Origin: a virus
IMG/VR virus record: IMGVR_UViG_3300050821_015712
Span: 1-45,737 of that record
DNA: 45,737 bases
Reading direction: 5' to 3' (one strand)
Shown here: one piece after another, positions 5,651 to 43,873 of the stretch
How positions within the stretch are numbered: position 1 is the first letter of the stretch
Layout of the letters: every line of letters starts with the position of its first letter
Notes under the pieces: generated by a model
The model's database searches: none
Seen by the model: the letters and a program-made list of their open reading frames with translations, nothing else
Told to the model about the DNA's origin: nothing
Program-made: the position numbers and the translations under genes

Positions 5651-6685
5651 ATGTCAACTCGCCCGCTACCGATCACCGCCTACCGACAACCCATTCCCGC
5701 GCAACTCTTCCTGATCGATGACGGCGATGCCGGCACCGCGCAAACCGTCGCGGCGATGTACCAGCAAATTTACGAAGGTTCGAAGAACGGCGAGATCAAC
5801 GCGCAAGCCATCGACATCATCCACGGCGCGCGCGTTCGCGATTTTGATTTTGGCGGGCAGCGGCGCGCCATCTTCAACTGGTTTCCGCGAAACATTATTT
5901 TCGTGCGCGATCCCGTAGCGGTAGAGACCGTGCGTACCCCGGTCGAAACCCTGCATCGCCGGGCTGGTGACTGCGATTGCCAGACCGTTTTAATGGGAGC
6001 TCTTCTCTCCACGATCGGGAATCACGTCCGCATCACCACGGTACGTTCTCAGCCGGGCAATCCGGATTTCTCGCACGTCTTCCTGGAAGTGCTCGACGGC
6101 GACAAATGGGTTCCCGTGGACTCCGCGCGGCCCGGCGCACGTTATGCGCGCGGCCCGGAGTACTATAAAGAACGTTTCCCCTGGCCGAATCCGTTCGATC
6201 CCGATGCCGCTCTCGGCAGGCTACGCGGATTGAACGGTTACGAAATTCCGCAAAACGCAGCGGCACTCAACAACACCTACCGCCCGATGGTGGTTCGGCG
6301 CCTAGCGGGACTTCGCGGACTGAATCGCCTGGCAGGCGCGCGCCTCGGCCGTCTGCGCGGACTTCGCGGACTCGGCCGCGGACGCATGGGCGACGATTCC
6401 GGCGATGGCGGATTCGATTTCAGCGGAGTGGCGCAAATTATCTCCGCAGGCGGCGCTGCGGCGGCGAACACGATCCGCGCGGTGAACACGCCAAGTTTTT
6501 CTAGTGGCCTGGTCTACAACCCAGCGACCGGTTCGTATACTTCTGCGCTCTCGCCCTACGGCAGCCCGTACGGATCGGTGGCGCCATCCGGCTATGTGAA
6601 CATTTTCGGCACGTTGGTTCCGACGAACACGCTGCTCGCCGGAGCTGCGGCGTTTGCTCTCTTGATGATTTGGGAAAAACGGTAG
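5651..6685 (+). CDS. Transglutaminase-fold membrane protein with RLRGL motif
   Basis: 344 residues in three parts. Residues about 75-165 carry a transglutaminase/cysteine-protease-like core: GDC with Cys108, then SHVFLEV with His142, then PVDSA with Asp157, in the order and spacing of the family triad. Residues about 224-262 are an Arg/Leu/Gly segment (LGRLRGLRGLGRGRMGDD) that recurs in four neighbouring proteins. The last 25 residues are a membrane segment ending in WEKR. First gene of the late block. A virion membrane protein that crosslinks, amidates or cleaves other virion proteins or cell-wall peptides would fit, but the substrate cannot be read from the sequence. Start: ATG 5651 with only a weak, distant AAAGGG. 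Confidence 0.75.
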   Translation: MSTRPLPITAYRQPIPAQLFLIDDGDAGTAQTVAAMYQQIYEGSKNGEINAQAIDIIHGARVRDFDFGGQRRAIFNWFPRNIIFVRDPVAVETVRTPVETLHRRAGDCDCQTVLMGALLSTIGNHVRITTVRSQPGNPDFSHVFLEVLDGDKWVPVDSARPGARYARGPEYYKERFPWPNPFDPDAALGRLRGLNGYEIPQNAAALNNTYRPMVVRRLAGLRGLNRLAGARLGRLRGLRGLGRGRMGDDSGDGGFDFSGVAQIISAGGAAAANTIRAVNTPSFSSGLVYNPATGSYTSALSPYGSPYGSVAPSGYVNIFGTLVPTNTLLAGAAAFALLMIWEKR

Positions 6686-6692
6686 GAGCACG

Positions 6693-7487
6693 ATGCCCTA
6701 TTTCAACATGTCGACGGCCAACCCCACGGGAGTACGTCCTTGGGGTTTCGCCATGCAAGCGCAAAAGAATCAGCTTGGACGACTGCGCGGATTGAGCCGA
6801 TTGAAATTTTATTTGCCGTCTGACTATCCGTTGCCGCAAAGCACGCTCGGGAATTTCTTTCCGAGGATTGCGAACATCCGGCAGTCGCCCTATACCGGGA
6901 AAAACACTTTCGGCGATCCGCAGCCGATCTATAAGCCGCTGAATCCTTTCTACTATCGCCCGGGATTGGGATTCGTACCTCCAACAGGAGCTCGTTCCGT
7001 TCAGCCGTTCAACAGCGCCGGACCGGTTTGGGGACCGCTAGTTAACGTGGGAGGAGATCCTATTCTTCCCGGGCCCGCACAAGACGGAAATCCTTTGAAC
7101 CTTCCTCCGGTCCCGGTGACGGGATCCGGAGTGCCGATCAGTCAGATCGTCTGGGCCAATGGTGGTCAACCCATCACTTACAACCCGGGGCAGCCAGTCA
7201 ACTGGAATGTTTACTATCAACAGCAAATCGCCGCGCAACAAGCAGCCGCTGCGGCTGCACAGCAAGCCGCGGCCAATGCCGCCGCCGCGTCCGCAGCGGC
7301 CATTCCGGCTTCCCAAGTGGCTGCGTCACCTTCTTCGCAGGCCGCCGCAGTGACCGCTCCGGCCGCCACCGCGCCGAGCTGGTTTACGGATCCCACGCAA
7401 GATGTGATCACCGGACTGCCGAATTGGGGATTGGTGGCCATCGCTGCAGGTGGCGCTCTGCTCTTGAGCGGAAAGGGGAGACGCTGA
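6693..7487 (+). CDS. Putative virion membrane protein, STANPTGVRPW family
   Basis: 264 residues with TAGGAG before the ATG. The N-terminus (FNMSTANPTGVRPWGFA) is nearly the same as that of the protein at 8141-8935, followed by the shared LGRLRGL motif (about 29-35). The middle is Pro/Asn/Tyr-rich. Then come an Ala/Gln-rich helical stretch (about 170-215) and a C-terminal membrane segment (WGLVAIAAGGALLLS) ending GKGRR. The stop overlaps the next ATG by one base. I recognise no named family. Tail-anchored topology and its place in the late block suggest a component of a viral membrane. Confidence 0.75.
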   Translation: MPYFNMSTANPTGVRPWGFAMQAQKNQLGRLRGLSRLKFYLPSDYPLPQSTLGNFFPRIANIRQSPYTGKNTFGDPQPIYKPLNPFYYRPGLGFVPPTGARSVQPFNSAGPVWGPLVNVGGDPILPGPAQDGNPLNLPPVPVTGSGVPISQIVWANGGQPITYNPGQPVNWNVYYQQQIAAQQAAAAAAQQAAANAAAASAAAIPASQVAASPSSQAAAVTAPAATAPSWFTDPTQDVITGLPNWGLVAIAAGGALLLSGKGRR

Positions 7488-8137
7488 TGCGTGTCGCTGC
7501 TTTCGATCCCCGAGTTCGCACGTTGAGCGCTTTCGATTCGCGCGTGCGTACGTTGAACGGTCTCGCCGCTGCAAGATTCCAGGCGCGACAGCGTTATCTG
7601 CACGGACTGGCATGCGCCTGCCGGCAACAGCAACTTGGCCGTCTGCGCGGTTTGCGCGGACTCGGTCGCTTCGGCCGCATGGGCGACGATACCGTCGATC
7701 AGGGAGTATTGGATCTCGCCACGCTTCCTCAGCCGAATCCTTTCGGGCCGACATTGGAGCAGCTCGGAACCACTCCTGCTGCTGTTGCTGCTGCCGCCGC
7801 TCAGGAAGCCGCTGCCGGCGCGCCGCAATCGATTCCCGCGAATACACCATTAACCGCGCAGGAAATAGCCAATCTTGCCAGCACTTCCGGACAGTACAAC
7901 ACGCCCGGCGATCCCAACGTTTACAACTCTTCCGGGCAAATCATCACCACGCTGAATTCTTCGCAGATGGCGCAAGTGGCGGCGTTGGTGGCGCAGGGAG
8001 CATCCCAGGCCGCTGCTCGCGCGCAAGTACTTGCGTTGCAGCCTTCGTTCCTCGGAAGCATCCCGAGCTGGGTTTGGTATGCCGGCATCGGGTTGGTGGG
8101 ATTGAGTTTGCTATCGAGCGGTTCGAAAAGGCGATAA
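7487..8137 (+). CDS. Putative virion membrane protein with RLRGL motif
   Basis: 216 residues from ATG 7487, which overlaps the preceding stop (TGATG). The N-terminus has a short internal duplication (FDPRVRTLSAFDSRVRTL), followed by the motif LGRLRGLRGLGRFGRMGDD (about 46-64). That copy is very close to the one in the transglutaminase-like protein. After an Ala/Gln-rich middle, the protein ends with a membrane segment (IPSWVWYAGIGLVGLSLL) and GSKRR. No known family recognised. Same architecture as its neighbours: Arg-rich N-terminal motif, low-complexity middle, C-terminal anchor. Confidence 0.75.
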   Translation: MRVAAFDPRVRTLSAFDSRVRTLNGLAAARFQARQRYLHGLACACRQQQLGRLRGLRGLGRFGRMGDDTVDQGVLDLATLPQPNPFGPTLEQLGTTPAAVAAAAAQEAAAGAPQSIPANTPLTAQEIANLASTSGQYNTPGDPNVYNSSGQIITTLNSSQMAQVAALVAQGASQAAARAQVLALQPSFLGSIPSWVWYAGIGLVGLSLLSSGSKRR

Positions 8138-8140
8138 ACG

Positions 8141-8935
8141 ATGTCGCACTATTTCAAGATGTCGACAGCGAATCCCACCGGGGTGCGTCCTTGGGAATTT
8201 GCCACGCAAAGCGGCGGACTGGGACATCCCCGAATGCGGCCGATGCGCCGGCTGCGCGGATTGGGCCGCGTTGGCGCGTTGAACTTCAGCCGGCTTGGGC
8301 GTCTCCGCGGAATGGGCGTGACGATTCCGGGAGCGCAAGCGCTGCAGGCGACCGCGGACAGTTACGCTTCCCAGCTTTCGCAAATGCAGCAGGCGCTCAC
8401 CGCCAGCCTGCAGCAAGCGTCCTCCGCTCAAATGTCCGGCGTGGATATGTCCGCGGAGCTCGGCATCATCAATTCGCAGCAAGCCGACCTGAACGGCACG
8501 ATCGAAAGTTTCAACACGGCGTATCGTGCGACGTACGGAACGGTCGCACCAGGTCTCGGAGCTCCGTGGGTTCTCATCGGTATTTTGACTGGCGCCGCTT
8601 TGCTGGTGTTGGCCGAATGGATTGCCGCCTGGTGGAGCACGCAGAACCAGGTGAACGCCGCGATACAGACCAAAGCGAATACCGCCGCCGCCGCGCAGGT
8701 GAGCGCTTCGAACATCACGCAGCAAGCCGCCGCCGCTTGCGCTTCTGGAGATCCATCGTGCGCGGAACTCACCACTCTGGCGCAGCAGGCCAACGGAAAC
8801 GTACAAGCCGGTTTGAATCCCGGTTTGCCAGGGTTGCCCACCGACTGGACCACATGGATTCAGAACAACGCGGTGACCATCGGACTGGTTTTTGCGGGCA
8901 TCATCATCGTTCCGAAACTTTTGAAAAAGATTTGA
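8141..8935 (+). CDS. Putative virion membrane protein, STANPTGVRPW family (paralogue)
   Basis: 264 residues. It shares its N-terminus (FKMSTANPTGVRPWEFA) with the protein at 6693-7487, then carries two Arg/Leu/Gly patches (RRLRGLGRVGALNF and LGRLRGMG). Residues about 70-130 are Gln/Ala-rich and probably coiled. Two membrane segments follow: WVLIGILTGAALLVLAEWIAAWW (about 148-170; two residues more if the flanks are counted) and a C-terminal one (VTIGLVFAGIIIVPKLLKKI). Between them lies an Ala-rich loop with two Cys (CASGDPSCAEL). It is likely to sit in a viral or host membrane. Function unknown. Confidence 0.75.
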   Translation: MSHYFKMSTANPTGVRPWEFATQSGGLGHPRMRPMRRLRGLGRVGALNFSRLGRLRGMGVTIPGAQALQATADSYASQLSQMQQALTASLQQASSAQMSGVDMSAELGIINSQQADLNGTIESFNTAYRATYGTVAPGLGAPWVLIGILTGAALLVLAEWIAAWWSTQNQVNAAIQTKANTAAAAQVSASNITQQAAAACASGDPSCAELTTLAQQANGNVQAGLNPGLPGLPTDWTTWIQNNAVTIGLVFAGIIIVPKLLKKI

Positions 8936-9212: not shown

Positions 9213-10103
9213 ATGAGCGAACTTTTCAAAATCGACGACATCGCGCAGAAGCCGGACGGCTGGCGCGTGCGGACGATCATCCCTCGAGGCGAAAGCCAGC
9301 ACCGTATTCGCATCGGTTTCCCACCTGGTGGGAGGCACAAGGGGGCGGGACGCCTGCTGCAGATTCTTCACCCCAAACATGAGAATCCGAGCTGCCTCGT
9401 CACGCCCCAGCGCGCCGCGCATCTCGCCAGCGAAGAACTCGGCATCGCGAACCCCGCCGAGCTACTCATCCTCGGTGCGAATCCTGCACAGCAAAATCCC
9501 GGGGCGGAATTACTGATCCTTGGCGCCAATCCTGGCGAAACGCAGCAAGCCAAAGCGGCGGAACTCTATCGCCAGTTTCAAGGCAAAGAGCCGGACAAAG
9601 TCCTCGAACTACAGCGCTCGACGGCCATGCGCAAGGACTACACCGGGCTTGCCGACCTCGAGGCTTTGGTGGTTTGCGAGCATTTCACGATGGCGGAGTA
9701 CGAACTGTTCTCTCGCGATATGCGGCGCGAAAACGGAAACTTTGGCCGCGTCCACAAACCGCCCAACACCGGCATCATCACTTTCGGACGGCGAGACAAA
9801 GTGAAGCTGGCATCCAATCCGGACGGCACGCAGCTCTACGTGCTCGGCGAAAATCAGGATTTGAGCGGCTGCCTGATGGACCTCGGCGTCGATCCCCGCA
9901 AAGACTTGATCGACCTGGGCTACTGCATCTGCGTGCGCTACATCGCGGAAAAAGCGCAGAACAATTTCGATACCGGGTTGTACTGGCACATCCTCGGCGA
10001 AGAATCGAAAGTTCCGCCGCGGCTGTTCTACGACAAGCTGAAACGCGAAATCGCTTTTGCCGGCGGCGAATACGTCGTCAAGGCTCCGGGGATCATCAAC
10101 TGA
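9213..10103 (+). CDS. Hypothetical protein with tandem ELLILGANP repeat
   Basis: 296 residues. Near residue 85 a short unit is repeated in tandem (AELLILGANPAQQN then AELLILGANPGETQ). Similar ELLxLGANP motifs occur in uncharacterised phage proteins, as far as I recall. The C-terminal 150 residues look globular (FTMAEYELFSRDMRREN, then TQLYVLGENQDLSG, then YICVRYIAEKAQ written as YCICVRYIAEKAQ in the protein). No catalytic motif recognised. The stop TGA overlaps the next ATG (TGATG). It is flanked by membrane proteins, so it may be a soluble virion or assembly factor; the sequence does not show this. Confidence 0.75.
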   Translation: MSELFKIDDIAQKPDGWRVRTIIPRGESQHRIRIGFPPGGRHKGAGRLLQILHPKHENPSCLVTPQRAAHLASEELGIANPAELLILGANPAQQNPGAELLILGANPGETQQAKAAELYRQFQGKEPDKVLELQRSTAMRKDYTGLADLEALVVCEHFTMAEYELFSRDMRRENGNFGRVHKPPNTGIITFGRRDKVKLASNPDGTQLYVLGENQDLSGCLMDLGVDPRKDLIDLGYCICVRYIAEKAQNNFDTGLYWHILGEESKVPPRLFYDKLKREIAFAGGEYVVKAPGIIN

Positions 10104-10939
10104 TGCCGCTGGCCATCCAAATCGTCCCTGACCGCGCGGCATTTCCCGCGTCGATGATGATTCGTCCGCGCGCACGCCGCATGCAGCGGCTCGGACGCTT
10201 TGGCGCGCTCACGCCCGACCAGGCGGCGCAGCAAGCCATGCCGACCAGCACGATCAGCAGCAAAGCCGGCTTCACGCAGGCGGTCTACAACGACATTCTG
10301 CAAGCCGCGCAGACCGGGAATTTCGTCGCGTTCAATCCTTCCGGATGCACCAGCATCAAGCCTTCCGGCGCGCAATTGGTTTTGACCGGTGTTTCCGGTG
10401 CAACCGCAGCAGCAAGTCTAGCACTGAAGCTGGCCGCTGTTGCCGGTCCCGCTGGATTGATCGTTGCCGGCGTGGGCGCCGCCATCCAGATTTTCGGTGC
10501 GCTCTTTGCCCACCACGCCCAAGCCGTCGCCCTGGAACAAAAAACCGTCTGCGCCGCTGTTCCCGCGGCGAGCGATTCCATCACTGCCATCACCCAGGCC
10601 GTACAAAACGGCACGGTACCGCCGCAGACCGGCATCCAGATGCTTCAGAACCTGCAAGCGCAATTCGCCCAGCAGGTCTCGCCCATCATCAAAAATAATT
10701 CCAGCCAATGCAACGCCGCGTGCGTGTGGGTAAAGATGCTGCAGGCGATCGTGGCGGAACTTTCCAGCCAGTTCCAAGACATGGCCAACGCGCAGCAGGC
10801 GCAATCCGCCACGGCGTCGAGCAATCCGATCGCGGCGGCCGGCAACGTTGTTAGTTCCACGGCCACGCAGCTTGGCGTGCCTTCCTGGGCGCTATACGCG
10901 GCTGCTGGTCTACTTCTGTTTGTGGTGGTGAGCAAGTGA
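10103..10939 (+). CDS. Putative virion membrane protein with RLGRFGAL motif
   Basis: 278 residues from ATG 10103, overlapping the previous stop. The N-terminus carries a short form of the Arg/Leu/Gly motif (RPRARRMQRLGRFGALT, about 22-38). A strongly hydrophobic Ala/Gly segment (about 100-135) is followed by a Gln-rich amphipathic region and a C-terminal membrane segment (PSWALYAAAGLLLFVVVSK). Three Cys (TVCAAV, SQCNAAC) lie between. The hydrophobic Gly/Ala stretch resembles channel or membrane-fusion segments, and a role in membrane penetration or DNA delivery is possible. This is inference only. The stop overlaps a GTG start (GTGA). Confidence 0.75.
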   Translation: MPLAIQIVPDRAAFPASMMIRPRARRMQRLGRFGALTPDQAAQQAMPTSTISSKAGFTQAVYNDILQAAQTGNFVAFNPSGCTSIKPSGAQLVLTGVSGATAAASLALKLAAVAGPAGLIVAGVGAAIQIFGALFAHHAQAVALEQKTVCAAVPAASDSITAITQAVQNGTVPPQTGIQMLQNLQAQFAQQVSPIIKNNSSQCNAACVWVKMLQAIVAELSSQFQDMANAQQAQSATASSNPIAAAGNVVSSTATQLGVPSWALYAAAGLLLFVVVSK

Positions 10940-11153: not shown

Positions 11154-11831
11154 ATGAGCACAAACGCACCGGCAGTGATGACGGCAGCTCCGGTTGACGT
11201 GCCAGCGTTGCTGGCGTTTCAAAAGGAATGTCTGCGCACCAAGAACTACAAATTCATCGGAAAGATCATGAGGATCGTTTTCGAAGTGACGGACGCCATG
11301 TACATCCCTCCGGAACTCGCCGAAGACTTGAAGAGCGATCCCATGGGGCCCTGCATCGAATTTTTCCCGGAAGCGAATCGGCTTCCCGTAGCGCAAGTGG
11401 AAGCGGCCGGCGCGCAGAGTTTTCTGTTGCCGCTCGCGCCTTGCCTGTTTGCGCCCGGCGGGCGCGTGGGATTCCCAGACAAGCCGGACCGGCATTGGGT
11501 TCCGGACAAAGGGCCGGAGACCGTCAAAGTGACCGACGAAAAAACCGGGGAGATCAGCTACAAAATGGAGCACGCGAAACCCACCATGCTCCAGCAGAAT
11601 TTACGCAACTTCTCTCGCGGCATTTTGCGCGGAACGAATTTCATCATCTACGAGCGTGTCGCGCAGATTCTCGTCAAAGCCAATGGCATTGCCGAAGGCT
11701 GGATACTGAAGTGCGAAAACAATCCCGCCGAGAATCCGCCCACGCACATGACGTTTTTGCTCGATCGCGCCACCGGAGAATGCTTTTTCTACGGCGGCAT
11801 CTACGAGATCACGCGCCCTGGAGCGTTCTGA
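11154..11831 (+). CDS. Hypothetical protein, possible virion or assembly protein
   Basis: 225 residues from ATG 11154 with AAAGGAAC upstream. I rejected the in-frame upstream extension because it overlaps the previous gene. It is soluble and of mixed alpha/beta pattern, with no membrane segment. Readable ordered parts are KNYKFIGKIMRIVFEVTD near the N-terminus, and FSRGILRGTNFIIYERVAQIL then THMTFLLDRATGECFFYGGIY near the C-terminus. No family recognised. Its place between small membrane proteins and the candidate capsid genes argues for a structural or assembly role. Confidence 0.7.
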   Translation: MSTNAPAVMTAAPVDVPALLAFQKECLRTKNYKFIGKIMRIVFEVTDAMYIPPELAEDLKSDPMGPCIEFFPEANRLPVAQVEAAGAQSFLLPLAPCLFAPGGRVGFPDKPDRHWVPDKGPETVKVTDEKTGEISYKMEHAKPTMLQQNLRNFSRGILRGTNFIIYERVAQILVKANGIAEGWILKCENNPAENPPTHMTFLLDRATGECFFYGGIYEITRPGAF

Positions 11832-11920: not shown

Positions 11921-12523
11921 ATGGTAAAGCACAGAAAAGGTTACAGGAATCCGCATCACCGCCATCGCAATCCCATCCTCGGCATGTCCGGCGGGGAGCT
12001 GATTGTCGAGACCGGCGCTGCGGTAGTCAACGGCGTGGCAACGCGCGTCATTCCCCAGATGATTCTCGGCACGAACAACACCGGGATCGTCGGGTATGCC
12101 GCAAACGCTGCCGCGGGGCTTGCGGGCGCATGGCTGGCCAGCAAGTTTTCCGTCAAAGCGGGACACGGCGCGCTGCTCGGCGCCGCGGTTGCCATCGCTT
12201 CGCGGATCCTCAGCGACACGATGGGTCAGAACGCTTTGGGTGGCGGGTTGAGTGGAGACATGGGCGGCGAGCTCGGTTTCTACATCAACAATAGCTTCCC
12301 ACTGCCGACGACAAGCAACGGCCCGTTGATGCTGAATCCCGGCTACAACGGTCCGCAAATGCTGTCCATGCAGATTCCGGGACAGCAGGCGACCATGGTG
12401 GCCACCGCGGCGGGAACGCAGGCGGTTGCCGGCGGCGGCGCGGGCAGCTCCAATGCCGCGCTGCAAACGGTAGCCAGCCCCAGTTCGGGTGCCGGCGTCT
12501 GGCAGAACCCCTGGGCTGCCTGA
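11921..12523 (+). CDS. Putative membrane-associated virion protein
   Basis: 200 residues from ATG 11921, chosen because a strong GGAAGGAG lies just upstream. An alternative in-frame ATG at 11831 would run through a GC hairpin and add 30 poorly ordered residues. The N-terminus is very basic (MVKHRKGYRNPHHRHRNP), suited to nucleic-acid or phosphate binding. It is followed by an Ala/Gly-rich hydrophobic region (about 25-95, with GAWLASKFS and GALLGAAVAIASRIL), then a Gly/Pro/Gln/Met tail ending GVWQNPWAA. No named family. The basic head and hydrophobic middle fit a protein that bridges viral DNA and membrane, which is inference. Confidence 0.7.
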   Translation: MVKHRKGYRNPHHRHRNPILGMSGGELIVETGAAVVNGVATRVIPQMILGTNNTGIVGYAANAAAGLAGAWLASKFSVKAGHGALLGAAVAIASRILSDTMGQNALGGGLSGDMGGELGFYINNSFPLPTTSNGPLMLNPGYNGPQMLSMQIPGQQATMVATAAGTQAVAGGGAGSSNAALQTVASPSSGAGVWQNPWAA

Positions 12524-12731: not shown

Positions 12732-13493
12732 ATGTTCACAGCAACAGAAAAACAAGCCAGCGCATCGTTCGGTACACCTTGGACCGAAGTGGATACGCAC
12801 GAACTTGGCCGTCCCCATCTCCGTTTCGGCAATCCCATTGTCGGCGGCGGACTGGAAGGACTGCGCCAGGCTTTGTACGACATCTACCGCGTCGATCCGA
12901 ACACCGTCGCTCCGCTGGTCACGCTGTTCTCCGTTCCCATCGGTGGCAACTACACCCAGGGCGTGGCCGCTTTGTTCCAAAAAACGAAGCTCCACACCAA
13001 TATGAAGCTCGGTGGTCTGCTCCAGTCGCCCAACAAGCACCTGGTGCGCTCCATCAAGTGCCGTATCTCGGGTGAACCCTCCGGCACGCAGCAGAATATC
13101 GCGAACGTCACCGACGTTCTCGGTTTCCTGTACGGCGTGCTCGCGGACTTCCAGGTCAACGACAAGGATTATTTCCTTGGCGAGCCTGCGGAGCATCCGC
13201 AGGGCGGCGGTGTGATGTTCTCGGCGGGTTCCGCAACCACCGTCGCGGCCACCACCACCGTCTCCGGAGTACCGAACAACGGATATCCGGACACACGGAA
13301 CATGTGGTCCACCGTGTACGACGGAATCTCGATCGAGCAAACGCAAACCTTCGGGCTCATCCTGGATCCGACTCAGGAAAACCTCGGAGCGTTCAAGACT
13401 CTGGCCGCCGCCGGCACGCTGTCCACCGGCCCTGGCACGGGTCTGAGCATCAAGTACGAGCTCGACGGGATCCTCTTCCGCGGGATCCAGTAG
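12732..13493 (+). CDS. Candidate major capsid protein
   Basis: 253 residues, soluble, no signal peptide or membrane segment, rich in beta pattern and Gly/Thr/Asn turns. Recognisable parts are LGRPHLRFGNPIVGGG near residue 27, LRQALYDIYRVDPNTV, VRSIKCRISGEPSGTQQNI in the middle, and LSIKYELDGILFRGIQ at the end. Support for a capsid role is indirect. It is preceded by a 208-base leader with hairpins and a strong ribosome binding site, it opens the cluster of beta-rich proteins that precedes the spikes, and no other capsid candidate of a known tailed-phage type exists. It could equally be a penton, or one of two or more jelly-roll proteins. Structure prediction would decide. Confidence 0.5.
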   Translation: MFTATEKQASASFGTPWTEVDTHELGRPHLRFGNPIVGGGLEGLRQALYDIYRVDPNTVAPLVTLFSVPIGGNYTQGVAALFQKTKLHTNMKLGGLLQSPNKHLVRSIKCRISGEPSGTQQNIANVTDVLGFLYGVLADFQVNDKDYFLGEPAEHPQGGGVMFSAGSATTVAATTTVSGVPNNGYPDTRNMWSTVYDGISIEQTQTFGLILDPTQENLGAFKTLAAAGTLSTGPGTGLSIKYELDGILFRGIQ

Positions 13494-13651: not shown

Positions 13652-14191
13652 ATGGCACAAGCAACTCAAACGACCTGCAAATGCTGCGCCGGACGGCGAA
13701 TCGTTCCGAATCCGTTGCAACGCAACATGCAGGCGTGTCCCATCTGCGGCGGCTCGGGCACGCAGCCGCAACAGGTTTTGCGCGTTCCGTACGACTACGT
13801 CTTTCCTCAGACGGTGCTCGCCGCCAACGCGCAAGGCAACATGGTCCTGCAGATCATGTTCGATTCCGATTTCGAATGGATCTTCACGGTCGGTTCGAGC
13901 ACCGGCGCTTTCATCATCACGGTCAACGATTCGTCGACCGGGCGCAACCTCTCGAACGCTCCCGTGCTCAGCTCGCTGTACATGGGCACGGCGCAATTGC
14001 CGTTTCCGTTCGTCGAGCCGTATCTTTTGGCGCGCTCGACGACCGTCACTGCCGCCGTGCAGGACGTGAGCGCCGCGGGCAACACCATTAACCTGGTGTT
14101 CAAAGGCTTCAAACTCTTCCCGAAAGACGCTCCGCAGCAAGGCGCTGCCGGACAAGTCTTTCCGGCGCAGCAGCAAGCTACTGGGAGCTAA
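13652..14191 (+). CDS. Beta-rich virion protein candidate with N-terminal zinc cluster
   Basis: 179 residues, with GAGAAGGAAACG before the ATG. Residues 9-31 hold four or more cysteines (CKCC, then CPICGGSG), a zinc-ribbon-like head. The remaining 140 residues are almost wholly beta: strand-turn repeats such as DFEWIFTVGSSTGAFIITV and INLVFKGFKLFP, length fitting a single jelly-roll. It is the first of three consecutive small beta-rich proteins. All three carry a late segment of the form LLARS/LRRTHTI/LLANRFV followed by a hydrophobic strand. A capsid, vertex or spike-base role is likely. The zinc head is unusual for such proteins. Confidence 0.55.
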   Translation: MAQATQTTCKCCAGRRIVPNPLQRNMQACPICGGSGTQPQQVLRVPYDYVFPQTVLAANAQGNMVLQIMFDSDFEWIFTVGSSTGAFIITVNDSSTGRNLSNAPVLSSLYMGTAQLPFPFVEPYLLARSTTVTAAVQDVSAAGNTINLVFKGFKLFPKDAPQQGAAGQVFPAQQQATGS

Positions 14192-14194: not shown

Positions 14195-14722
14195 TTGCCT
14201 CGACAGCAAACCGTATTCCACCAAGATCGCGTGCCTGGCGTCCCTGGACGCTGGGCACTCGGCTTGTGGCTCACCTATCGCAAACTGGTCACGTCCGCGT
14301 ACGTTCCCGGGCAGAAATATCGTTCTCTGCTCAGCGGCCAGCAGCCGTACTGGTTTGTACTCGGTTTTCCCAATGGCAATTTTCTGCCCATGGCGCCGAA
14401 CTCCAACCAGGACGACCGCGTCACCTGCGTCAACGACTTCATCATGTTCGCCATGATGGGCGCGGCCGTCGACTTGGTTGGCGTGCAGAACTTCGATTTC
14501 TCCGCGCAGCTCTACGATTCCGGTGCGGATGAAAACTGGACGGAAGCGCTTTCGCCCTGCGCCAACAATTTCGGTACTGCGCAGCATCCTTTGATTCTGC
14601 GGCGCACGCACACCATCAAGGCGGGAACGCCGATCATCGCGCGTTTCCAAAATAGCCATGCGGTAAACAACAACATGCCGCAAATCGTTCTTTTCGGAGT
14701 GCTGGCGCCCGCGGCGCCGTAG
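14195..14722 (+). CDS. Beta-rich virion protein candidate (second of three)
   Basis: 175 residues from TTG 14195, with GGGAG upstream. No ATG would give a full-length product. The sequence is beta-rich and Asn/Gly-rich, without membrane segment or signal peptide. Parts: YWFVLGFPNGNFLPMAPNSN, CVNDFIMFAMMGAAVDLVG, and LRRTHTIKAGTPIIARFQNS near the end. The final pattern (strand, K/R-x-G-x-P, strand, N, strand) resembles the matching part of the next protein (LLANRFVRLQVTNASIVPAG), so the two may share a fold. Likely capsid or vertex protein; not proven. Confidence 0.55.
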   Translation: MPRQQTVFHQDRVPGVPGRWALGLWLTYRKLVTSAYVPGQKYRSLLSGQQPYWFVLGFPNGNFLPMAPNSNQDDRVTCVNDFIMFAMMGAAVDLVGVQNFDFSAQLYDSGADENWTEALSPCANNFGTAQHPLILRRTHTIKAGTPIIARFQNSHAVNNNMPQIVLFGVLAPAAP

Positions 14723-14731: not shown

Positions 14732-15253
14732 ATGGGCAGTCCACGTCAAGGATTGGGCGGCAGCGTCGAAGCGTATCTTCGGCAGACCAACAAGCAGGAT
14801 ATCTGTCCAGTCGCCATCATTCGTCTGCCCATTCATCTTTTCCCCAGCACCAAGAGTTTCAACCTGATCCGCACCGCGACCATCGTCATTCCGCCAGTCA
14901 GCGCCGGCGTGTTCACGGACATCGTGGCGTTTCGCATCGATCCGGGGAAAAACGGCATCCTTAAATTTATCGCCAACCAGTTTGTCGGAGGAGGCTTCAC
15001 GGATGGCAGCGGCGCACTCACCTGGCGGCTGCTGCACGATGAAAAGCCGGTCACTGGGCTGGAAAACATCAACGTTTCCCTCGGCACCAATCAGCTTCCC
15101 AGCGAAATCGCGCCGGTGCGCCTGCTGGCGAATCGCTTCGTGCGGCTGCAAGTTACCAACGCCTCGATCGTGCCCGCCGGGCAAATCATCGAAGGCGGCC
15201 TCCGCGGCTGGCTCTATCCCAAGGATGAGGAAGCCCCCGGAGCCAACTACTAA
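14732..15253 (+). CDS. Beta-rich virion protein candidate (third of three)
   Basis: 173 residues, with GTAGGGAG upstream. Soluble, beta-rich: FNLIRTATIVIPPVSAGVF, GILKFIANQFVGGGFTDGSG, then APVRLLANRFVRLQVTNAS and AGQIIEGGLRGWLYPKDE. It reads like a jelly-roll or similar beta-sandwich. It closes the group 13652-15253 just before the secreted spike genes, so it could be the vertex protein that anchors spikes. This is inference from order and composition only. Confidence 0.55.
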   Translation: MGSPRQGLGGSVEAYLRQTNKQDICPVAIIRLPIHLFPSTKSFNLIRTATIVIPPVSAGVFTDIVAFRIDPGKNGILKFIANQFVGGGFTDGSGALTWRLLHDEKPVTGLENINVSLGTNQLPSEIAPVRLLANRFVRLQVTNASIVPAGQIIEGGLRGWLYPKDEEAPGANY

Positions 15254-15261: not shown

Positions 15262-16329
15262 ATGCGTTCCCATTTCAAAAAGTTCGCCCTATCGATGCTT
15301 CTCGGCCTGCTCGGGCTCCTTTCTCCGCAGTCCGCTCAAGCGCAGGTCACGTATACGTCGCCACAAACGGTGACATCGACTGCGTTCAACAACATTGCGT
15401 GTACGGGTACCACACAGCGCGCCTTGATTCCGAATCTCGGACAAGTCGGTCACTTTATCACTCTTACGCTCGGAGTGATTCCTCACGGAATTTCAACGGC
15501 GATCCAGGGTTCGTATGATGGAGTGTTATTTTTCGACATTTCTAATACGGTAACTTTTGCAAACGGTTTGGTGCAACCGACCGGACAGGGACAGGGATAC
15601 TATCCGGTAGTCGCCGTCCGTGTGAATTGCCTGGACACCACCGGACGTTTCACCGTTTTTTACACGGGAACGGGAGGAAGCATCGGTCCCCCTTCCGGAA
15701 GCGCGGTCGTCAGCCAGGTGATTCAAAACATCACCATATCCGCGTCCGATGGCACTTCCAACCAATTTTCTCTTAATTCTCCGTTCGGAAATTCCGGAGG
15801 AGCTCTGATACTCCAGGCCAACGGCGCCATGCCGGCAGGGTCGAATGTGGAGTTGATCTGCGACCTGGCATCAGCGGTAGCTAATGTGGTCGGTCCATTT
15901 GCCATCCCCACCACCGCTGGAGTGTTTTCTTTTCCGATACCGAACTACCCGTGTGCAACGCCAGAGATCCAGTTTTTCTCTGGTGGAGCGAGTTCCAACA
16001 CCTACAATCTGTATTATTCCTTTTCTCAGCCAGGACTCGATTCTCCCGCATTCCTTTTTTCGCACATCACCGGAACCACGGCAACTTCAGTAAAAAGTTC
16101 GCCGTCGTCTTTCCTTCATAATTTGACGGTCAATACCGGAGCTGCGGGAACGATCAGTATTTTCGACTTGGCATCCAGCTCCTGCACTGGAACTCCTTCG
16201 ACGAACACGGCGGCGGTGATCACAGCCACGGCCACCACCCTCCAGACGTTCACCTACGACATCAATTTCGTCAATGGAATCTGTGTGAAGGCATCGGTAG
16301 CGATGGACATCACGGTTTCTTCTAAATAG
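15262..16329 (+). CDS. Secreted beta-rich protein (spike cluster, gene 1)
   Basis: 355 residues with TAAGGAGAACG before the ATG. The N-terminus is a clear Sec signal peptide: a basic start (MRSHFKKF), a Leu-rich core and cleavage after AQA near residue 28. The mature part is Ser/Thr/Gly/Asn-rich beta, without Lys/Arg-rich regions, typical of an extracellular adhesin or fibre. Segments: IQGSYDGVLFFDISN, and INFVNGICVKASVAMDITVSS at the end. No enzymatic motif. It is the first of six consecutive signal-peptide genes in the same direction. Confidence 0.8.
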   Translation: MRSHFKKFALSMLLGLLGLLSPQSAQAQVTYTSPQTVTSTAFNNIACTGTTQRALIPNLGQVGHFITLTLGVIPHGISTAIQGSYDGVLFFDISNTVTFANGLVQPTGQGQGYYPVVAVRVNCLDTTGRFTVFYTGTGGSIGPPSGSAVVSQVIQNITISASDGTSNQFSLNSPFGNSGGALILQANGAMPAGSNVELICDLASAVANVVGPFAIPTTAGVFSFPIPNYPCATPEIQFFSGGASSNTYNLYYSFSQPGLDSPAFLFSHITGTTATSVKSSPSSFLHNLTVNTGAAGTISIFDLASSSCTGTPSTNTAAVITATATTLQTFTYDINFVNGICVKASVAMDITVSSK

Positions 16330-16338
16330 GAGGATGGC

Positions 16339-17076
16339 ATGCGAAAAATAATTCAATGGAGTATCCGCCATCGATTGATTCTCGGCATTTTCTTGTTTTT
16401 AGTAGCGAATCATATGTTCGATGGCGGACCGTTCGATGTGGTCGTCAACACCTACGCCCAGGCAGCACCGACCACGGTTACGGCTACCATCAAGGATCCA
16501 TCGGGGCTTGCCTATGCCAACGCCAGCATAAACATTAGCCTGACGCCGGCAACGCCCGGAGGCGCTACGTGTACTGGATCCGGACCCATCGGCCAGATTC
16601 CAGTTTTCAACACCAACTCCAACGGTTTTTTCTCTATCAATCTTTGTCCCAATGGTTCCATCGTGCCGGCCAGTTCGCAGTGGCTGTTCACCGTTTCGCT
16701 TTCGCCGGGTATCCAACTTCCACTCGGGAAAGGACCGCAATCTTTTTCCGCAGCCATCACGATCTCCGGAGCTTCGCAGGATATCAGCGCCACACTCAAC
16801 GCTTTGGCTCCCGCTCTGACCACGAACGGCAATCTTGTGGCCACCAGTGCGGCTTTCGCCACCGCCACTACTGCCGGAACGTGCGTTCAAAGCACGACCG
16901 CGGTGGCGGGGGCCACAACCAGCATGGTCGCTACCGCTTCGCCCGTAAGCACTCCTGGAGTTGGCGCCGTATGGTCGGCATTTGTTTCGTCGGCAGGCAA
17001 CGTGACCATCAATGAATGTGCGGTAGCCACCAGCGCTGGCGGAACCATCGCCTTTAACATTCGTGTCCAACAATAG
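16339..17076 (+). CDS. Secreted protein with carboxypeptidase-regulatory-like domain (spike cluster, gene 2)
   Basis: 245 residues, with TAGGAGG before the ATG. A long signal peptide or anchor (RLILGIFLFLVANHM) probably ends after YAQA near residue 40. Residues about 42-155 (ATIKDPSGLAYANASINIS and so on) are a clear paralogue of the N-terminal domain of the 1889-residue protein that follows. The two agree through NGFFSINLCPN and end with LNALAPAL. The module resembles carboxypeptidase-regulatory-like/Ig-like folds, frequent in outer-surface proteins. The C-terminal 90 residues are Ala/Thr/Val-rich. It probably assembles with, or decorates, the large spike protein. Confidence 0.75.
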   Translation: MRKIIQWSIRHRLILGIFLFLVANHMFDGGPFDVVVNTYAQAAPTTVTATIKDPSGLAYANASINISLTPATPGGATCTGSGPIGQIPVFNTNSNGFFSINLCPNGSIVPASSQWLFTVSLSPGIQLPLGKGPQSFSAAITISGASQDISATLNALAPALTTNGNLVATSAAFATATTAGTCVQSTTAVAGATTSMVATASPVSTPGVGAVWSAFVSSAGNVTINECAVATSAGGTIAFNIRVQQ

Positions 17077-17085
17077 AGGGCTCCG

Positions 17086-20000
17086 ATGCGGAAGAGACTA
17101 CTGCTGGCAGCCACGCTCTTCCTCGCTGTGCCGTTCCTCGCTTTCGCTCAGTCGGTGGTCGTCACCGGAACGATCGTCGATCCCAACGGCCTGCCGTACT
17201 CGAATGCCAGCGTCAACATCAGCCTGACGCCGGCAGCGCCAGGCGGCGCGATCTGCACTGGGATCGGCCGCATCAATCCCAACGGCTCGTTCCTCACCAA
17301 TGGCAACGGCTTTTTCACCATAAATCTTTGTCCTAACGCTTCCATCACGCCGGTCGGGTCGCAGTGGCAATTCAACGTTTCGATTTCACCGGGAGCTTTG
17401 CCGCCGATCGGCACCGGACCGCAATCCTTTAGCTCCAATATCACCATTGTCGGTCCAGGACCACAGGACATCAGCACCACGCTGAACGCTCTCGCGCCGG
17501 CGCTGAGCCACATCACCGGAGGAGGCGGAGGCACTGGAAACTGCACTGCGCCTTCCCCAGCAGGCTCGCTGGTCAAAACCAATGTTCCCATCACCGGCTG
17601 CGTTGCCAGCAACGTAACCGAAGTCGGATCCGTGTTGTCCGTTGGCGATACAACTGACATTTTTGGAGACTTCCATACTGCAGGGCCAAATCCCTATTTC
17701 GACATCACGCTTTATGGCGGCTATGTCGGCACCAACACGGTAGGCACGACAGGCACGATGGGCGCAACATCCAGTTCACTGGCTATCGCTGCGACGCAGG
17801 ATTGGGCAAATGGGCAAGGCGTTGTTGTCTACGGCGCCGGACCAGCGCCTTCTCTCGGCACACCTTCAGGCGTAGTCGTCACTCCCGTTGGCATTCTGAA
17901 CGGATCCACGACGGTCAACTACAAAGTTGTGTCGGAAGATTATTTCGGCGGACTGACGGCAGCCAGCGCGGCGGGAACAACCACCACCGCGGCTTCCGCT
18001 TTGGGCGTTACGAACGCGACGATATCGAGCTGCAGCCGAAACGGAGGACTGGTTAGCTGCACCACTACAGCAAATCATAATTTTCAGGTAGGCAAGCAGG
18101 TCAACATACTGGCCGGCAGCACAGGGGACACTACTTTCGAGGGTGCATTCACCATCTATACAACGCCCACCGGAAGCTCGTTCACCTACTGGCAAAACCT
18201 GCTCCCGAATGTTTCAGGGACTGTCACTACAGGCACAGCGCAAGTCGTGGCGGCCAACCTGGTCCAGTGGACGATTCAGCCTTACGGCCCAATTCGCAGT
18301 TTCGTGTACCGGCAAGTGGGCGCGGGCGCTTTCGTGCTCACAGGCGTCGTGCAGGGCATGGACAGCGGATTTTACGATTTAGGATTTACGGTCAATCCGG
18401 CCAGCCTGCCAAGTTACGTGCCAACCACGCCCCCATCGTCCGTCACCAATCAATGGTTGTCGACCACTATTATGGCTGGCGGGGGAACTACGACGCTCAC
18501 TCTGGCAAGCGCAGCCACGAATTCAGTGACGGGCGTAGCAGTCTTGCACGACAACACGCAGAACGTGCTCAATCTCTGCAAAACGGGTGGAGCGGCCTCT
18601 GGCGGCGGCACCATCTACTTCCCTATCGGGATGAACGCGCTGTTCAACTCCACGTTGAATCTTTCGGGATGTTCGGGATTCCAGCAGCGATTCTTATTCG
18701 GCGTGCAGGCTACGGTGAACGAAACCATTCTGCCGGCACACCTATTTATCGACTCCGTACCATCGGCAGTCAGTCAGGTGGGCTTTCCGTCATGGAACGA
18801 TGGCACCCAACTATGGACCGGAAAAGGGTATCCACTGCTCTACCTTCTCCCTGGCTCCAGTTCCGGCAACAGCATTGGGCATATCTATTTTAACGTTTTT
18901 GGAGCCTACCAATCCGCGGTTGTGCAGGACGAAGACGCAACGGGAAACAACGTCGTCAACATTCAGTACAACTCCGACTATTTCGTAGGTGGCGCTAACA
19001 CCGGCCCACCGTTCGTCATGAAGGGCGGCGGCGGTTTCCTGTTCGAGAAGGGAGGTTTCGCAGTCGGCTCAACTAGTTTCGCTTCCCCTCCAGCGCTACT
19101 GATAATCCCCAATTTTGGTCTCGGCAACACATCGCAGCAACTTGCAGGAAACGTCAACCTGAACTACGTGTCCTTCGCGGGCGCGGGGATCGTGCTGGAC
19201 TCCGAAGCAGTCGTAAGCGTCTCGAACGGCTCACACATGACGTTCAGAGAACCGCTGATGGAGAGTTCCTTTACGCCTATCTTCCGAGCCGCTGGCGGTA
19301 GCGGCATCATCTCCGACATGGAGTTCGATAATCCCAGTTACGCGGACTTTGTAGGCGGCGCTGCTACGCCTCTGTTCGACATGACCACTGCGTCAAACCT
19401 CGAACAATTAAAAATTTACCAAGCGAATCCTAGTAACTCCAACCAGCCTATCGTCACAGGTCCCAATCTGACCAGTTCAAGTTCGCAAGGCTCCGTAAGC
19501 TACTCGGAATTGCCGAACTCCGGCTTTTCCTTGGATGCTTACAACAACTGGAACATCCTCGGATTCGGTACCTCCGAATTCGGCTACAGCCTGACTCAGC
19601 CAGTCGCGCCTAGCGGGTCCGCGGTTAGCGGCGGCACCATTCCTGCTAACAGTTACTGCTATAAAATCTTGCCGATTGATATCAACGGTGGCATAGGTCC
19701 CATCTCTTTACCCTCTGGGTGCATAGCAGTCAATGGCAGCCAGCAAATTACACTCAATTGGACTCCAGTCAACGGGCAGGTGAAGACCACAATCTGCCGG
19801 GGCACTACGGTTAACAACATCGGATGCGGCGGCGCGGTTGGCCTTATCGCTATCTCCGGAACGTCCTTCACGGACAATCATCCTCAAACTGACTTCTCCG
19901 TAAGCGTGCCACAATCCTCAACAGGAGCTTCATCCAGCGTTGGATCGGTAGGAATCAGTACCTATAATCTAAAACTCACGTCAAACGGGTCACTCATCAA

Positions 20001-27301: not shown

Positions 27302-27313
27302 GAGGATTTTGAA

Positions 27314-29102: not shown

Positions 29103-29805
29103 CGCGCTGCAAGCCTGGCAGCCGGCGCGCCTGAGCATCTATGGCTTGGTGCGTGCGGCTCGAGGCGGCCTGGGCGCCGCCAGCACCACGCCCGCGATCG
29201 CGACTCTGGTGCAACAGGCGGCCATCCGCTATGGCGTGGATCCCGGACTGGCGCTCAGCGTGGCGCAGCATGAATCCGCATTGAATCCCAACGCGGTAAG
29301 CTCGGCCGGCGCCCAGGGCGTGATGCAGCTCGAACCGCCCACCGCCGCGCAGTATGGCGTCACCAATCCATTCGATCCCGTGCAGAACGTGAACGCCGGC
29401 GTGCACTACCTGGCCGATCTGATCGCGCAATTTGGCGGCGACGTCGTCAAAGGCGTGGCGGCCTACAATTGGGGCCCGGGAAACCTGAACAATGCCATCA
29501 ACACTTACGGCGGCAATTGGCTGAGCGCCGCCCCCACGGAGACGCAAAACTATGTTGCCGCCATTACCGGAGTTACCGCGGAGTCCAATGCGCCTTCGCC
29601 GGCCGTTCCGCAGCCTTCGCAGCAGAGTGCTGCGCCTGTTACGATCGATGCGTCAACTGGCCTTCCCGTGGTGGACGGGATGGACGTAAGCCAGCTCGAT
29701 ACGATCAGCGCCGGCGTGCTTCCCGGTTCGATTCCTCAATCGGTGGTGTACGGTGGATTGGCGCTCGGCGCGATCGTGGCGGTGCAGCTTCTAACGCGCG
29801 ATTAA
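29095..29805 (+). CDS. Membrane-anchored lytic transglycosylase (SLT fold)
   Basis: 236 residues from GTG 29095. Residues about 38-160 carry the SLT lytic-transglycosylase signature: catalytic Glu60 in AQHESALNPNAVS, then GAQGVMQLEP, then GVHYLADLIAQFGGDV and AAYNWGPGNLN. This enzyme type cleaves peptidoglycan glycan strands, leaving 1,6-anhydro-muramic ends. The C-terminus is a membrane segment (SVVYGGLALGAIVAVQLLT), which agrees with the tail-anchored architecture of the putative virion membrane proteins. It is therefore a good candidate for a virion-borne entry enzyme, like PRD1 P7, rather than the lysis enzyme. A second such enzyme follows at 30238. Confidence 0.88.
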   Translation: MPNALQAWQPARLSIYGLVRAARGGLGAASTTPAIATLVQQAAIRYGVDPGLALSVAQHESALNPNAVSSAGAQGVMQLEPPTAAQYGVTNPFDPVQNVNAGVHYLADLIAQFGGDVVKGVAAYNWGPGNLNNAINTYGGNWLSAAPTETQNYVAAITGVTAESNAPSPAVPQPSQQSAAPVTIDASTGLPVVDGMDVSQLDTISAGVLPGSIPQSVVYGGLALGAIVAVQLLTRD

Positions 29806-41164: not shown

Positions 41165-41430
<266 letters not shown>

Positions 41431-41434
<4 letters not shown>

Positions 41435-42025: not shown

Positions 42026-42028
42026 GGC

Positions 42029-43873
42029 TTACGCCTCCACGATGTTGATCTTCATGCCTGGGACGGCTTGGTAGCCACCGTTTTCCTTGGTCAGGAAACC
42101 GAGATTGGCCAGGTTGTCGCATTCGTTGTACACCCCAGGCTTGGCCACTTTACGGCCGCGGCGCACAAGTTCGGTGTAGGCGCGGCTGGCGGAAACGACT
42201 TCCTTGAAAAAGTCTTCGGAGATGAGCAGAGCCAGTGAACCGCGCAGGGATTGGCCGTCCGCCTCGATCGTGGGCCGAGAGACGGTGACGCGGATCGCCG
42301 GCTTGGCCAGGAGTACCGCCAGCAGCTCGGGATCTTCCATGGCACGGCGTTTCACGTAAGCATAGATTTCTTCCATGCTGGCGTCTCGCGCCATGGATTG
42401 CGGCAGTTGCCGGGCTGCCGTTTTGCTTTCCTGCTGCGTCATGTGCGGAATTGGTTTCCCCATCGGTTCCTCGTCTTTCCGGTCGTACAGTTTAGATAGC
42501 TGCCTCGCTAATTCTTGAATGTCTTCGTGGAGCGTTTGGATCTCGGCGCGGATTTGTGCGGTTTCCGATTGGCTGTTGGAGTCACCTGCTGCGTCTGTTC
42601 GACGCCCAGTGCCAGGGGCGGTAATCCCAATCGGTTTGACTGAATCACCACTGACGCTTCGTATCCCAGCAGCTTGAGATGCGCGTTTACCTTCGCCAGT
42701 TCTTTCATCAGAGCTGTCGTTTTCACGTTCATGATCGATATGCGAGTCTGCGGCATCGGCTTTCTCCTCGAACTCTTCATGTGAAACGTGAATAGCTGGC
42801 GCTGGCTGCGGCGGCGCTGCGGGACGCTTGGGAGCTGGCGGCATGGACGGGATCGCGCGGCGAGGCTTCCCGTCGGCGGTACGGTCCTTGGCGTAGAACA
42901 TGCACTGATTGGCGTCCGCCCACACCGGCTGAACGTAAATCTTGCGGCTTTCCGTGCCGTAGAGCATGAAAAACTCGCCTTTGCCTAGCGTCATAATCTC
43001 CGTGGCGCTGGGCGGAGCCGGCAAGCTGACAAAACTCTTGATGGTGCGAGCCACTTCGTTCATTTCGCGCTGATTTCCGACCATCCAGCAACCCATCTGC
43101 CCGAGAATCACTTTGTCGATGCCGCGGATGTCCTGGCAATCCGCCCACAGAAAATTGTGCAGCGCGGCGGCGCGGCGGATGAACTCGCGCCCGGCAGTGC
43201 GAGTGATCGATCCGTGATCCTCGCCGATAAAGTTCCACGCCTCCGGAACCACGAAGATGGTGTTTTGCTCCTCTTCGTAGACCCATTCGAAGGCGTTGGC
43301 CATCAGCATCTCTTGCACGTTGTGGTGATACGCGCGCATGTCGATGATGTTGACGCCTTTTTTCAGCTCGAGGCGGTTGCTGCGGGGAATCTCCGCCAGC
43401 TCGGGAATGATGCTGGCGAAGTAGAAGTGCATGCGTTTCAGGATGCTGAGCTCGCGCTTGCCGACTTTGCCTTTGGGGTCGAACGTCCATTCGTCTTTTT
43501 TGTCGTTGAACTCGGCGTTCAGCCGGCGTTTGATGCGCTCCCACACGCCGCCGAGCGAGCGGACGCCGTTGCAGAGCTCCATGATCTCGACTTCTTTGTC
43601 GTTCTGGGAATAGCCGGTGGTCTGCTCGAACAGCGCTTTGACGTAGCGCCAGTCGTAGCGTTCCTTGAAGTACGGATCGATCTGCCGGCCGAACTGGAAC
43701 GCGGACTCGCCGCGCTTGGTGAGGAAAACGACGGCGCGCATTCCGGAACGCTCGACGAGGGCTTCCTGGGCAGTGGTTTTTCCGAACTGCGTCTGCCCGG
43801 TGCTCGCCATGTGCGTCACGGGGATGTGCACCGCGCGCCCTGTCCCGATTTCGTAGCCGGCTAGGATTTGCAT
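42029..43873 (-). CDS. HerA/FtsK-superfamily ATPase (packaging ATPase candidate)
   Basis: 614 residues. Walker A is GQTQFGKT (26-33, Lys32) near the N-terminus. A Walker-B-like NTIFVVPEAWNFI occurs near residue 208-219, with Pro where the usual Asp stands but the catalytic Glu kept. Other HerA-like parts are KRGESAFQFGRQID, KKGVNIIDMRAYHH and LGKGEFFMLYG. A long charged linker (about 345-430) leads to a coiled coil (IRAEIQTLHEDIQELARQL) and a C-terminal winged-helix-like domain (EVVSASRAYTELVRRGRK, then NLANLGFLTKENGGY). Such ATPases package DNA in PRD1-like and related membrane phages, and other members move plasmid or chromosomal DNA. The absence of a terminase makes packaging the best guess. 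Confidence 0.82.
   Translation of the reverse strand: MQILAGYEIGTGRAVHIPVTHMASTGQTQFGKTTAQEALVERSGMRAVVFLTKRGESAFQFGRQIDPYFKERYDWRYVKALFEQTTGYSQNDKEVEIMELCNGVRSLGGVWERIKRRLNAEFNDKKDEWTFDPKGKVGKRELSILKRMHFYFASIIPELAEIPRSNRLELKKGVNIIDMRAYHHNVQEMLMANAFEWVYEEEQNTIFVVPEAWNFIGEDHGSITRTAGREFIRRAAALHNFLWADCQDIRGIDKVILGQMGCWMVGNQREMNEVARTIKSFVSLPAPPSATEIMTLGKGEFFMLYGTESRKIYVQPVWADANQCMFYAKDRTADGKPRRAIPSMPPAPKRPAAPPQPAPAIHVSHEEFEEKADAADSHIDHERENDSSDERTGEGKRASQAAGIRSVSGDSVKPIGITAPGTGRRTDAAGDSNSQSETAQIRAEIQTLHEDIQELARQLSKLYDRKDEEPMGKPIPHMTQQESKTAARQLPQSMARDASMEEIYAYVKRRAMEDPELLAVLLAKPAIRVTVSRPTIEADGQSLRGSLALLISEDFFKEVVSASRAYTELVRRGRKVAKPGVYNECDNLANLGFLTKENGGYQAVPGMKINIVEA

What the first reader, a model, noticed from the sequence alone, without database searches (positions are those of the whole stretch)
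5651..43873. Probable large tailless, membrane-containing phage outside the usual size range
No terminase, portal, tape measure, tail or HK97-type capsid gene is recognisable in a full genome. Present instead are a HerA/FtsK-type ATPase (42029-43873), many small single-pass or tail-anchored membrane proteins, a tail-anchored lytic transglycosylase, and small beta-rich proteins as capsid candidates. Known tailless membrane phages (PRD1, PM2, P23-77 types) have genomes of about 10-20 kb, so 45.65 kb would be exceptional.
Basis: partly seen in the sequence, partly recalled or inferred. Interest (0 to 1): 0.85.

Follow-up and report, generated by a model that had tools for sequence, protein, structure and literature searches.

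The report
Large tailless phage family, acidobacterial hosts
This is very probably a complete 45.65-kb tailless phage whose closest cultured relative is the isolated salt-lake phage SSIP-1 (43.8 kb, also tailless and membrane-containing); it belongs to a previously hidden family of large circular tailless phages associated with soil-type Acidobacteriota, so a size that looked unprecedented is a family trait.

Summary
The window is a circularly closed 45,651-bp virus record. Window proteins scanned against PHROGs and Pfam show no portal, terminase, HK97 or tail-tube match. [quoted passage not shown] Tailless membrane phages of this size are therefore not new.

Profile searches found at least 17 relatives with the same virion block. 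Ten are end-closed circles of 32.5-38.8 kb, and two are proviruses at a dif-like site in Acidobacteriota MAGs. The core is transglutaminase, tail-anchored membrane proteins, 11984, 12732, 13652, 14231, 14732. A divergent P-loop ATPase (42029) is in every close virus record of at least 14 kb.

12732 is the best major-capsid candidate: 191-aa relatives keep its core, and a low-confidence model has eight strands, with viral jelly-roll capsids prominent among its weak fold matches. A single jelly roll is favoured, but no sequence match to any known capsid protein was found.

Best reading: a new SSIP-1-like group of large tailless, probably membrane-containing phages. Lipid, capsid fold and packaging role remain inferred.

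The parts
1..86 (.). direct terminal repeat, identical to 45652-45737: closure of a circular (or circularly permuted) genome of 45,651 bp
   Evidence: relatives close with repeats of other lengths (24-169 bp)
2129..3649 (-). DnaB-type replicative helicase
   Evidence: Pfam DnaB 9.5e-27 and AAA_25; family of 7 genomes
4011..5396 (-). conserved 461-aa protein, divergent from the virion operon
   Evidence: homologues in 12 relatives by profile
5651..6685 (+). transglutaminase/cysteine-protease-fold virion-type protein with C-terminal TM; triad C108-H142-D157 invariant in 11 aligned homologues
   Evidence: Pfam Transglut_core 4e-7; homologue of SSIP-1 structural protein gp34; alignment
6693..7487 (+). 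tail-anchored membrane protein (shares N-terminal MSTANPTGVRPW with 8141)
7679..8137 (+). tail-anchored membrane protein
8141..8935 (+). membrane protein with two TM segments, one C-terminal
9213..10103 (+). conserved virion-block protein; NP[AS]ELL-type peptide kept in most homologues and resembling a peptide in SSIP-1 gp44
   Evidence: 16 genomes
10103..10939 (+). conserved Ala-rich membrane protein, C-terminal TM
11154..11831 (+). conserved virion-block protein
11984..12523 (+). conserved Gly/Ala-rich protein directly before the capsid candidate
   Evidence: same relative position as SSIP-1 gp44
12732..13493 (+). major capsid protein candidate, predicted single jelly roll (8 strands), 253 aa
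   Evidence: in all 19 elements compared; AF2 pLDDT 49.8, pTM 0.47; Foldseek hits include many viral jelly-roll capsids, none with E<=1e-3; 191-aa homologues keep the core
13652..14191 (+). minor capsid candidate; here and in some relatives with an N-terminal CxxC zinc-ribbon
   Evidence: paralogue of 14231 (hhalign prob 97)
14231..14722 (+). minor capsid candidate, paralogue of 13652 (ORF opens at 14195, TTG)
14732..15253 (+). beta-rich core virion protein, candidate minor capsid or vertex protein
   Evidence: 18 elements; alignment
15262..27937 (+). cassette of large modular proteins with Sec-type signal peptides (15262, 16339, 17086, 22752, 24131, 27314): candidate spikes or receptor-binding proteins; accounts for much of the extra length of this genome
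   Evidence: signal-like N termini in family 7 (11/15) and 14 (4/8); modular matches
29095..29805 (+). lytic transglycosylase (SLT) with C-terminal TM anchor
   Evidence: Pfam SLT 2.5e-28; tail-anchored SLT also in SSIP-1 (gp54)
42029..43873 (-). divergent P-loop ATPase (HerA/FtsK-like motifs), candidate genome-packaging motor
   Evidence: found in G004 and in 13 of 14 close virus records; the exception is the 13.6-kb fragment L121; motifs
45652..45737 (.). second copy of the terminal repeat

Best explanation
The window is a complete circular dsDNA genome of a tailless, icosahedral, probably internal-membrane phage. It belongs to a family of Acidobacteriota-associated elements distantly related to SSIP-1. 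Capsid shell: 12732 (predicted single jelly roll) with 13652/14231/14732 as minor capsid proteins. Membrane: the tail-anchored proteins (5651, 6693, 7679, 8141, 10103) sit in the internal membrane; 5651 carries an intact cysteine-protease/transglutaminase triad and may process virion proteins; 29095 cuts the host wall at entry. Packaging: the 42029 P-loop ATPase pumps DNA into the shell in place of a terminase and portal. The 15.3-27.9 kb cassette makes the surface or receptor-binding proteins. Some relatives integrate at dif, presumably using the host XerCD recombinase. Shown: circle, gene content, homology to gp34, conserved synteny, absence of detectable tailed-phage hallmarks, dif-bounded proviruses in relatives. 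Inferred: capsid identity and fold, lipid, packaging role, processing, host of the window itself.
For: SSIP-1 gp34 was the only match in 50,697 phage records for nine concatenated virion-type proteins. The transglutaminase family profile scores gp34 at 78.1 bits against at most 25.2 bits for cellular homologues in three Acidobacteriota genomes. gp34 and the SSIP-1 SLT protein gp54 share C-terminal TM anchors with ours. Conserved block in 15-19 elements. Ten relatives closed by exact end repeats. ATPase in 13 of 14 close virus records. Eight-strand model with viral jelly-roll capsids prominent among weak fold hits. Homologues of 191 aa. No tailed-phage hallmark in the window, in relative G1003, or in the more distant G1019. 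Provirus ends coincide with dif half-sites.
Against: The capsid candidate has no sequence match to any known capsid protein, SSIP-1 gp45/46 included. The model has low confidence and no fold hit passes E 1e-3; non-viral jelly rolls are also among the hits. Only the transglutaminase, and weakly the SLT, link it to SSIP-1. SSIP-1's annotated ATPase gp40 resembles our DnaB-like AAA_25 protein rather than our 42029. There is no direct evidence of lipid or particles. Export signals on putative spike proteins are unusual for a cytosolically assembled capsid.
Confidence: 0.8

Rival explanations
1. A tailed phage (Caudoviricetes) whose portal, terminase, capsid and tail genes have diverged beyond recognition.
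For: One weak tape-measure hit for 10103; similarity of 24131 to a protein of EBPR siphovirus 1; a 'terminase'-labelled PHROG in a relative.
Against: That terminase hit is to a DUF87/HerA ATPase. No other head or tail hallmark in the elements scanned; 12732 models as a beta jelly roll; the conserved block consists of small beta proteins and tail-anchored membrane proteins. No tape-measure-length gene is conserved in the virion block.
Confidence: 0.07
2. A greatly enlarged double-jelly-roll (Bamfordvirae-type) phage.
For: Tailless membrane phages of that kind exist; 253 aa is near the size of the PM2 capsid protein (269 aa).
Against: Homologues of 191 aa keep the same core, which looks too short for two barrels; the model has eight strands; no match to PM2 P2, FLiP or PRD1 P3; surveyed prokaryotic double-jelly-roll genomes are 7-18 kb (PMC5894146).
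Confidence: 0.08
3. A plasmid, domesticated element or pleomorphic vesicle-type virus carrying capsid-like genes without making icosahedral virions.
For: HerA-type ATPases also occur in mobile elements; membrane proteins and Sec-type signals abound; one provirus (G268) is short and lacks the ATPase.
Against: Closed circles recovered repeatedly as virus records; the capsid-like block is kept complete; wall-degrading enzymes with virion-type anchors; specific link to a characterised icosahedral phage.
Confidence: 0.05

Closest known systems
[quoted passage not shown]
   Same: Circular dsDNA of about the same size; tailless, internal membrane (literature); homologous transglutaminase virion protein gp34 with C-terminal TM; tail-anchored SLT; similar order transglutaminase ... 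membrane proteins ... capsid genes; many small tail-anchored proteins.
   Different: No detectable homology between capsid candidates; SSIP-1 has two capsid protein types, ours one clear candidate; different ATPase; SSIP-1 has an annotated integrase gene, the window has no tyrosine integrase; different host phylum.
Thermus phage P23-77 / Matshushitaviridae (Helvetiavirae, realm Singelaviria)
   Same: Circular dsDNA, tailless, internal membrane, single jelly-roll capsid proteins, small packaging ATPase, virion lysozyme.
   Different: 17 kb; no sequence match of capsid or ATPase.
Sphaerolipoviridae (SH1 type)
   Same: Tailless internal-membrane viruses of about 30 kb (PMC12643093).
   Different: Linear genomes with terminal proteins, archaeal hosts; not compared by sequence here.
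Flavobacterium phages phiCjT23 and FLiP
   Same: Membrane-containing phages; phiCjT23-like prophages are flanked by dif sites (PMC9719478).
   Different: Circular ssDNA (FLiP 9.2 kb), double jelly roll; no capsid match with FLiP.

Membership tests
SSIP-1-like phages | homologue of virion protein gp34 | tested here: met
   78.1 bits versus at most 25.2 for cellular homologues
SSIP-1-like phages | capsid proteins homologous to gp45/gp46 | tested here: not met
   hhalign probability about 1 or below
SSIP-1-like phages | large circular dsDNA genome, about 44 kb | tested here: met
   86-bp end repeat, 45,651 bp; SSIP-1 43,788 bp circular
SSIP-1-like phages | icosahedral virion with internal membrane | not testable with these tools
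   needs particles; tail-anchored proteins only suggest it
Helvetiavirae / Singelaviria | vertical single jelly-roll major capsid protein | tested here: inconclusive
   low-confidence eight-strand model, capsid fold hits above E 1e-3; no sequence match to P23-77 VP16/VP17
[quoted passage not shown]
   eight strands in the model and 191-aa homologues argue against; no match to PM2 P2, FLiP, PRD1 P3
Caudoviricetes | portal, terminase and HK97-fold capsid genes | tested here: not met
   no such match in window proteins
HerA/FtsK superfamily ATPases | family profile match | tested here: inconclusive
   no Pfam hit in 13 members; DUF87 chain at E 0.49; hhalign to a DUF87 family prob 39

The most novel reading that the evidence does not exclude
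The family is a separate high-rank lineage of large single-jelly-roll tailless phages, in which the shell uses a capsid protein unrelated to those of SSIP-1 and P23-77, virion proteins are trimmed at G-[LMF]-G linkers by the virion-borne transglutaminase-fold protease, and spike proteins are exported through Sec before joining the particle.
Probability: 0.2. Interest if true: 0.82.

Novelty: new variant of a known kind. Interest (0 to 1): 0.62.

Why it matters
SSIP-1 has been described as hardly resembling anything in GenBank (PMC6356626). This window and its relatives give it company: many closed genomes with a shared core, plus probable hosts (Acidobacteriota, a major soil phylum). It shows that tailless phages of 30-46 kb are a class missed by profile-based annotation, since no PHROG or Pfam model covers their capsid block. 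It also gives concrete targets (an alignable capsid candidate, a conserved ATPase, dif-integrated lysogens) to test how a tailless shell handles a genome three times larger than PRD1's.

Tried and rejected
Single-protein scans of viral and genome contigs with 12732, 42029, 5651 and 24131 found nothing, as did plasmids and phages for 12732 and 42029; relatives appeared only after a DUF5131 search happened to lead to Acidobacteriota MAGs. Single-sequence AF2 of 12732 failed (pLDDT 30). PDB sequence searches with family profiles gave nothing usable for capsid candidates or ATPase. A dif-like attP was sought in the window and not found; matches in circular relatives are about what chance gives. 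A conserved domesticated gene cluster was considered for the two proviruses at one locus, but the capsid gene is rare across Acidobacteriota (4 of 396 genomes, two of them weak; 5 of 399, two of them weak), so repeated insertion at dif fits better. The G-[LMF]-G motif was noticed before it was counted, so its enrichment is only a lead.
Full report
1. What is in the window. The ends share an exact 86-bp repeat and the record is a single virus contig, so the unit is 45,651 bp. Gene calling gives a minus-strand replication/accessory half (DnaB helicase 2129, D12 methyltransferase 38018, ASCH-like 38947, DUF5131 39922, ATPase 42029) and a long plus-strand virion half from 5651 to about 34.9 kb. 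GC is even, about 58%.

2. Hallmarks of tailed phages. Pfam and PHROG scans of the window proteins found DnaB, SLT, transglutaminase, D12 methylase, DUF5131 and a few small domains, and nothing from the head-and-tail set beyond one weak tape-measure match of 10103 (22.6 bits). Three minus-strand proteins (2129, 38018, 39922) were scanned with Pfam only. One relative (G1003) and one more distant element (G1019) likewise lacked portal, HK97 and tail-tube matches. G1003's only 'terminase' label is a HerA/DUF87 ATPase; GenBank labels PM2 P9 and PRD1 P9 likewise.

3. The SSIP-1 link. A concatenated tblastn of nine virion-type proteins against 50,697 phage records hit one protein only: gp34, a structural protein of SSIP-1, a 43,788-bp circular genome. 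Pairwise 29.6% over 98 aa, E 4e-10; profile probability 99.3. The control is decisive: the family profile gives gp34 78.1 bits, and at most 25.2 bits to cellular transglutaminases of three Acidobacteriota genomes. A relative's protein also has gp34 as its best phage match. The SSIP-1 SLT protein gp54 is a weaker match and, like ours, ends in a TM anchor. SSIP-1 is tailless, membrane-containing and encodes two major capsid protein types (PMC6356626).

4. A hidden family. Whole-genome searches with 12732 found homologues in Acidobacteriota MAGs. Alignments of these (A2, A3, A6) then found IMG/VR relatives. Gene families over 19 elements give a core: 12732 in 19, transglutaminase in 18, 14732 in 18, 13652/14195 in 18, 9213 in 16, ATPase in 14, plus 11154-, 11984-, 15262- and 16339-type proteins. 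Ten relatives close by exact end repeats of 24-169 bp, at 32.5-38.8 kb before trimming. The window is the longest member found complete, with an unusually large cassette between 15.3 and 27.9 kb (1,889- and 1,056-aa proteins).

5. Capsid. 12732 has no sequence match to P23-77 VP16/VP17, PM2 P2, FLiP, PRD1 P3 or SSIP-1 gp45/46. AF2 with 11 sequences gave a low-confidence model (pLDDT 49.8, pTM 0.47) with eight main strands. Foldseek hits in PDB and BFVD are rich in viral jelly-roll capsids (luteovirus, circovirus, Sulfolobus polyhedral virus 1, nodavirus, CRESS viruses), alongside C1q/TNF-type jelly rolls and PNGase F; none reaches E 1e-3. Shorter homologues (189-222 aa) align across the same core, which favours one barrel. 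13652 and 14231 are paralogues.

6. ATPase. Thirteen aligned proteins keep GQTQxxxGKTT, a PEAWxF Walker B-like segment and NFxWxDxQ. Thirteen of 14 close-family virus records have it; the exception is the 13.6-kb fragment L121. The more distant elements and the two integrated proviruses lack it. It is HerA/FtsK-like, not proven.

7. Membrane and entry. C-terminal TM anchors are conserved in the transglutaminase (15/18), SLT (5/5), a second lysozyme-like family (8/8) and families 18 and 20 (6/6 each). The transglutaminase triad C108, H142, D157 is invariant in 11 homologues, so it may be a virion protease; its linker and other anchored proteins are rich in G-[LMF]-G (7 observed, 1.8 expected; SSIP-1 10 versus 3.0; post hoc).

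8. Host and life cycle. In G268 (C10:73007-100101) and G007 (C42:138278-174065) the element lies between the same flanking host genes; its ends are 18- and 15-bp repeats that are half of a dif-like site, and no tyrosine integrase lies inside. This fits Xer-type insertion, as reported for phiCjT23-like prophages (PMC9719478). No such site was found in the window itself. The window's host is inferred to be Acidobacteriota from its relatives.

9. Verdict. New variant of a known kind: SSIP-1-like large tailless phages, with a capsid family of their own.

Noticed in passing
window 15262-27937: Six consecutive genes begin with Sec-type signal peptides; the trait is conserved in family 7 (11/15) and partly in family 14 (4/8). 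Phage spike or fibre proteins rarely carry export signals.
   Followed up: partly
L089-L090, L158-L159 (G268) and L093-L094, L160-L161 (G007): Two proviruses of the family at the same host locus (between MiaB-side genes and truB), bounded by dif half-sites, in opposite orientations.
   Followed up: partly
L119, L120, L122, L126 (contigs of 34-97 kb): More distant elements with a 191-aa capsid-like protein and an ~1,100-aa transglutaminase protein; no 42029-type ATPase, no tail genes seen in one of them.
   Followed up: partly
L112, L113 (Planctomycetota genomes G853, G863): Short homologues of the capsid candidate outside Acidobacteriota.
   Followed up: no
window 31315-31740 and 34482-34856: Two otherwise unrelated proteins end in nearly the same peptide (PDAISAQFATV), encoded by a 33-bp repeat at 91% identity; not seen in relatives.
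   Followed up: partly
window 9213-10103: Peptide NPAELLILGANP is kept in most homologues; SSIP-1 structural protein gp44 has NPAELVVHENP.
   Followed up: partly
window 24131-27301: Residues 544-860 resemble gp39 of EBPR siphovirus 1 (27%, 8e-15): a surface or receptor-binding module shared with a tailed phage.
   Followed up: no
window 34865-34939: A single tRNA-Met(CAT) gene near the end of the virion half.
   Followed up: no
L130:5439-7238 (G1003): Some relatives carry a second, true DUF87/HerA ATPase that PHROGs labels terminase large subunit; the G007 provirus has this type and not the 42029 type.
   Followed up: partly
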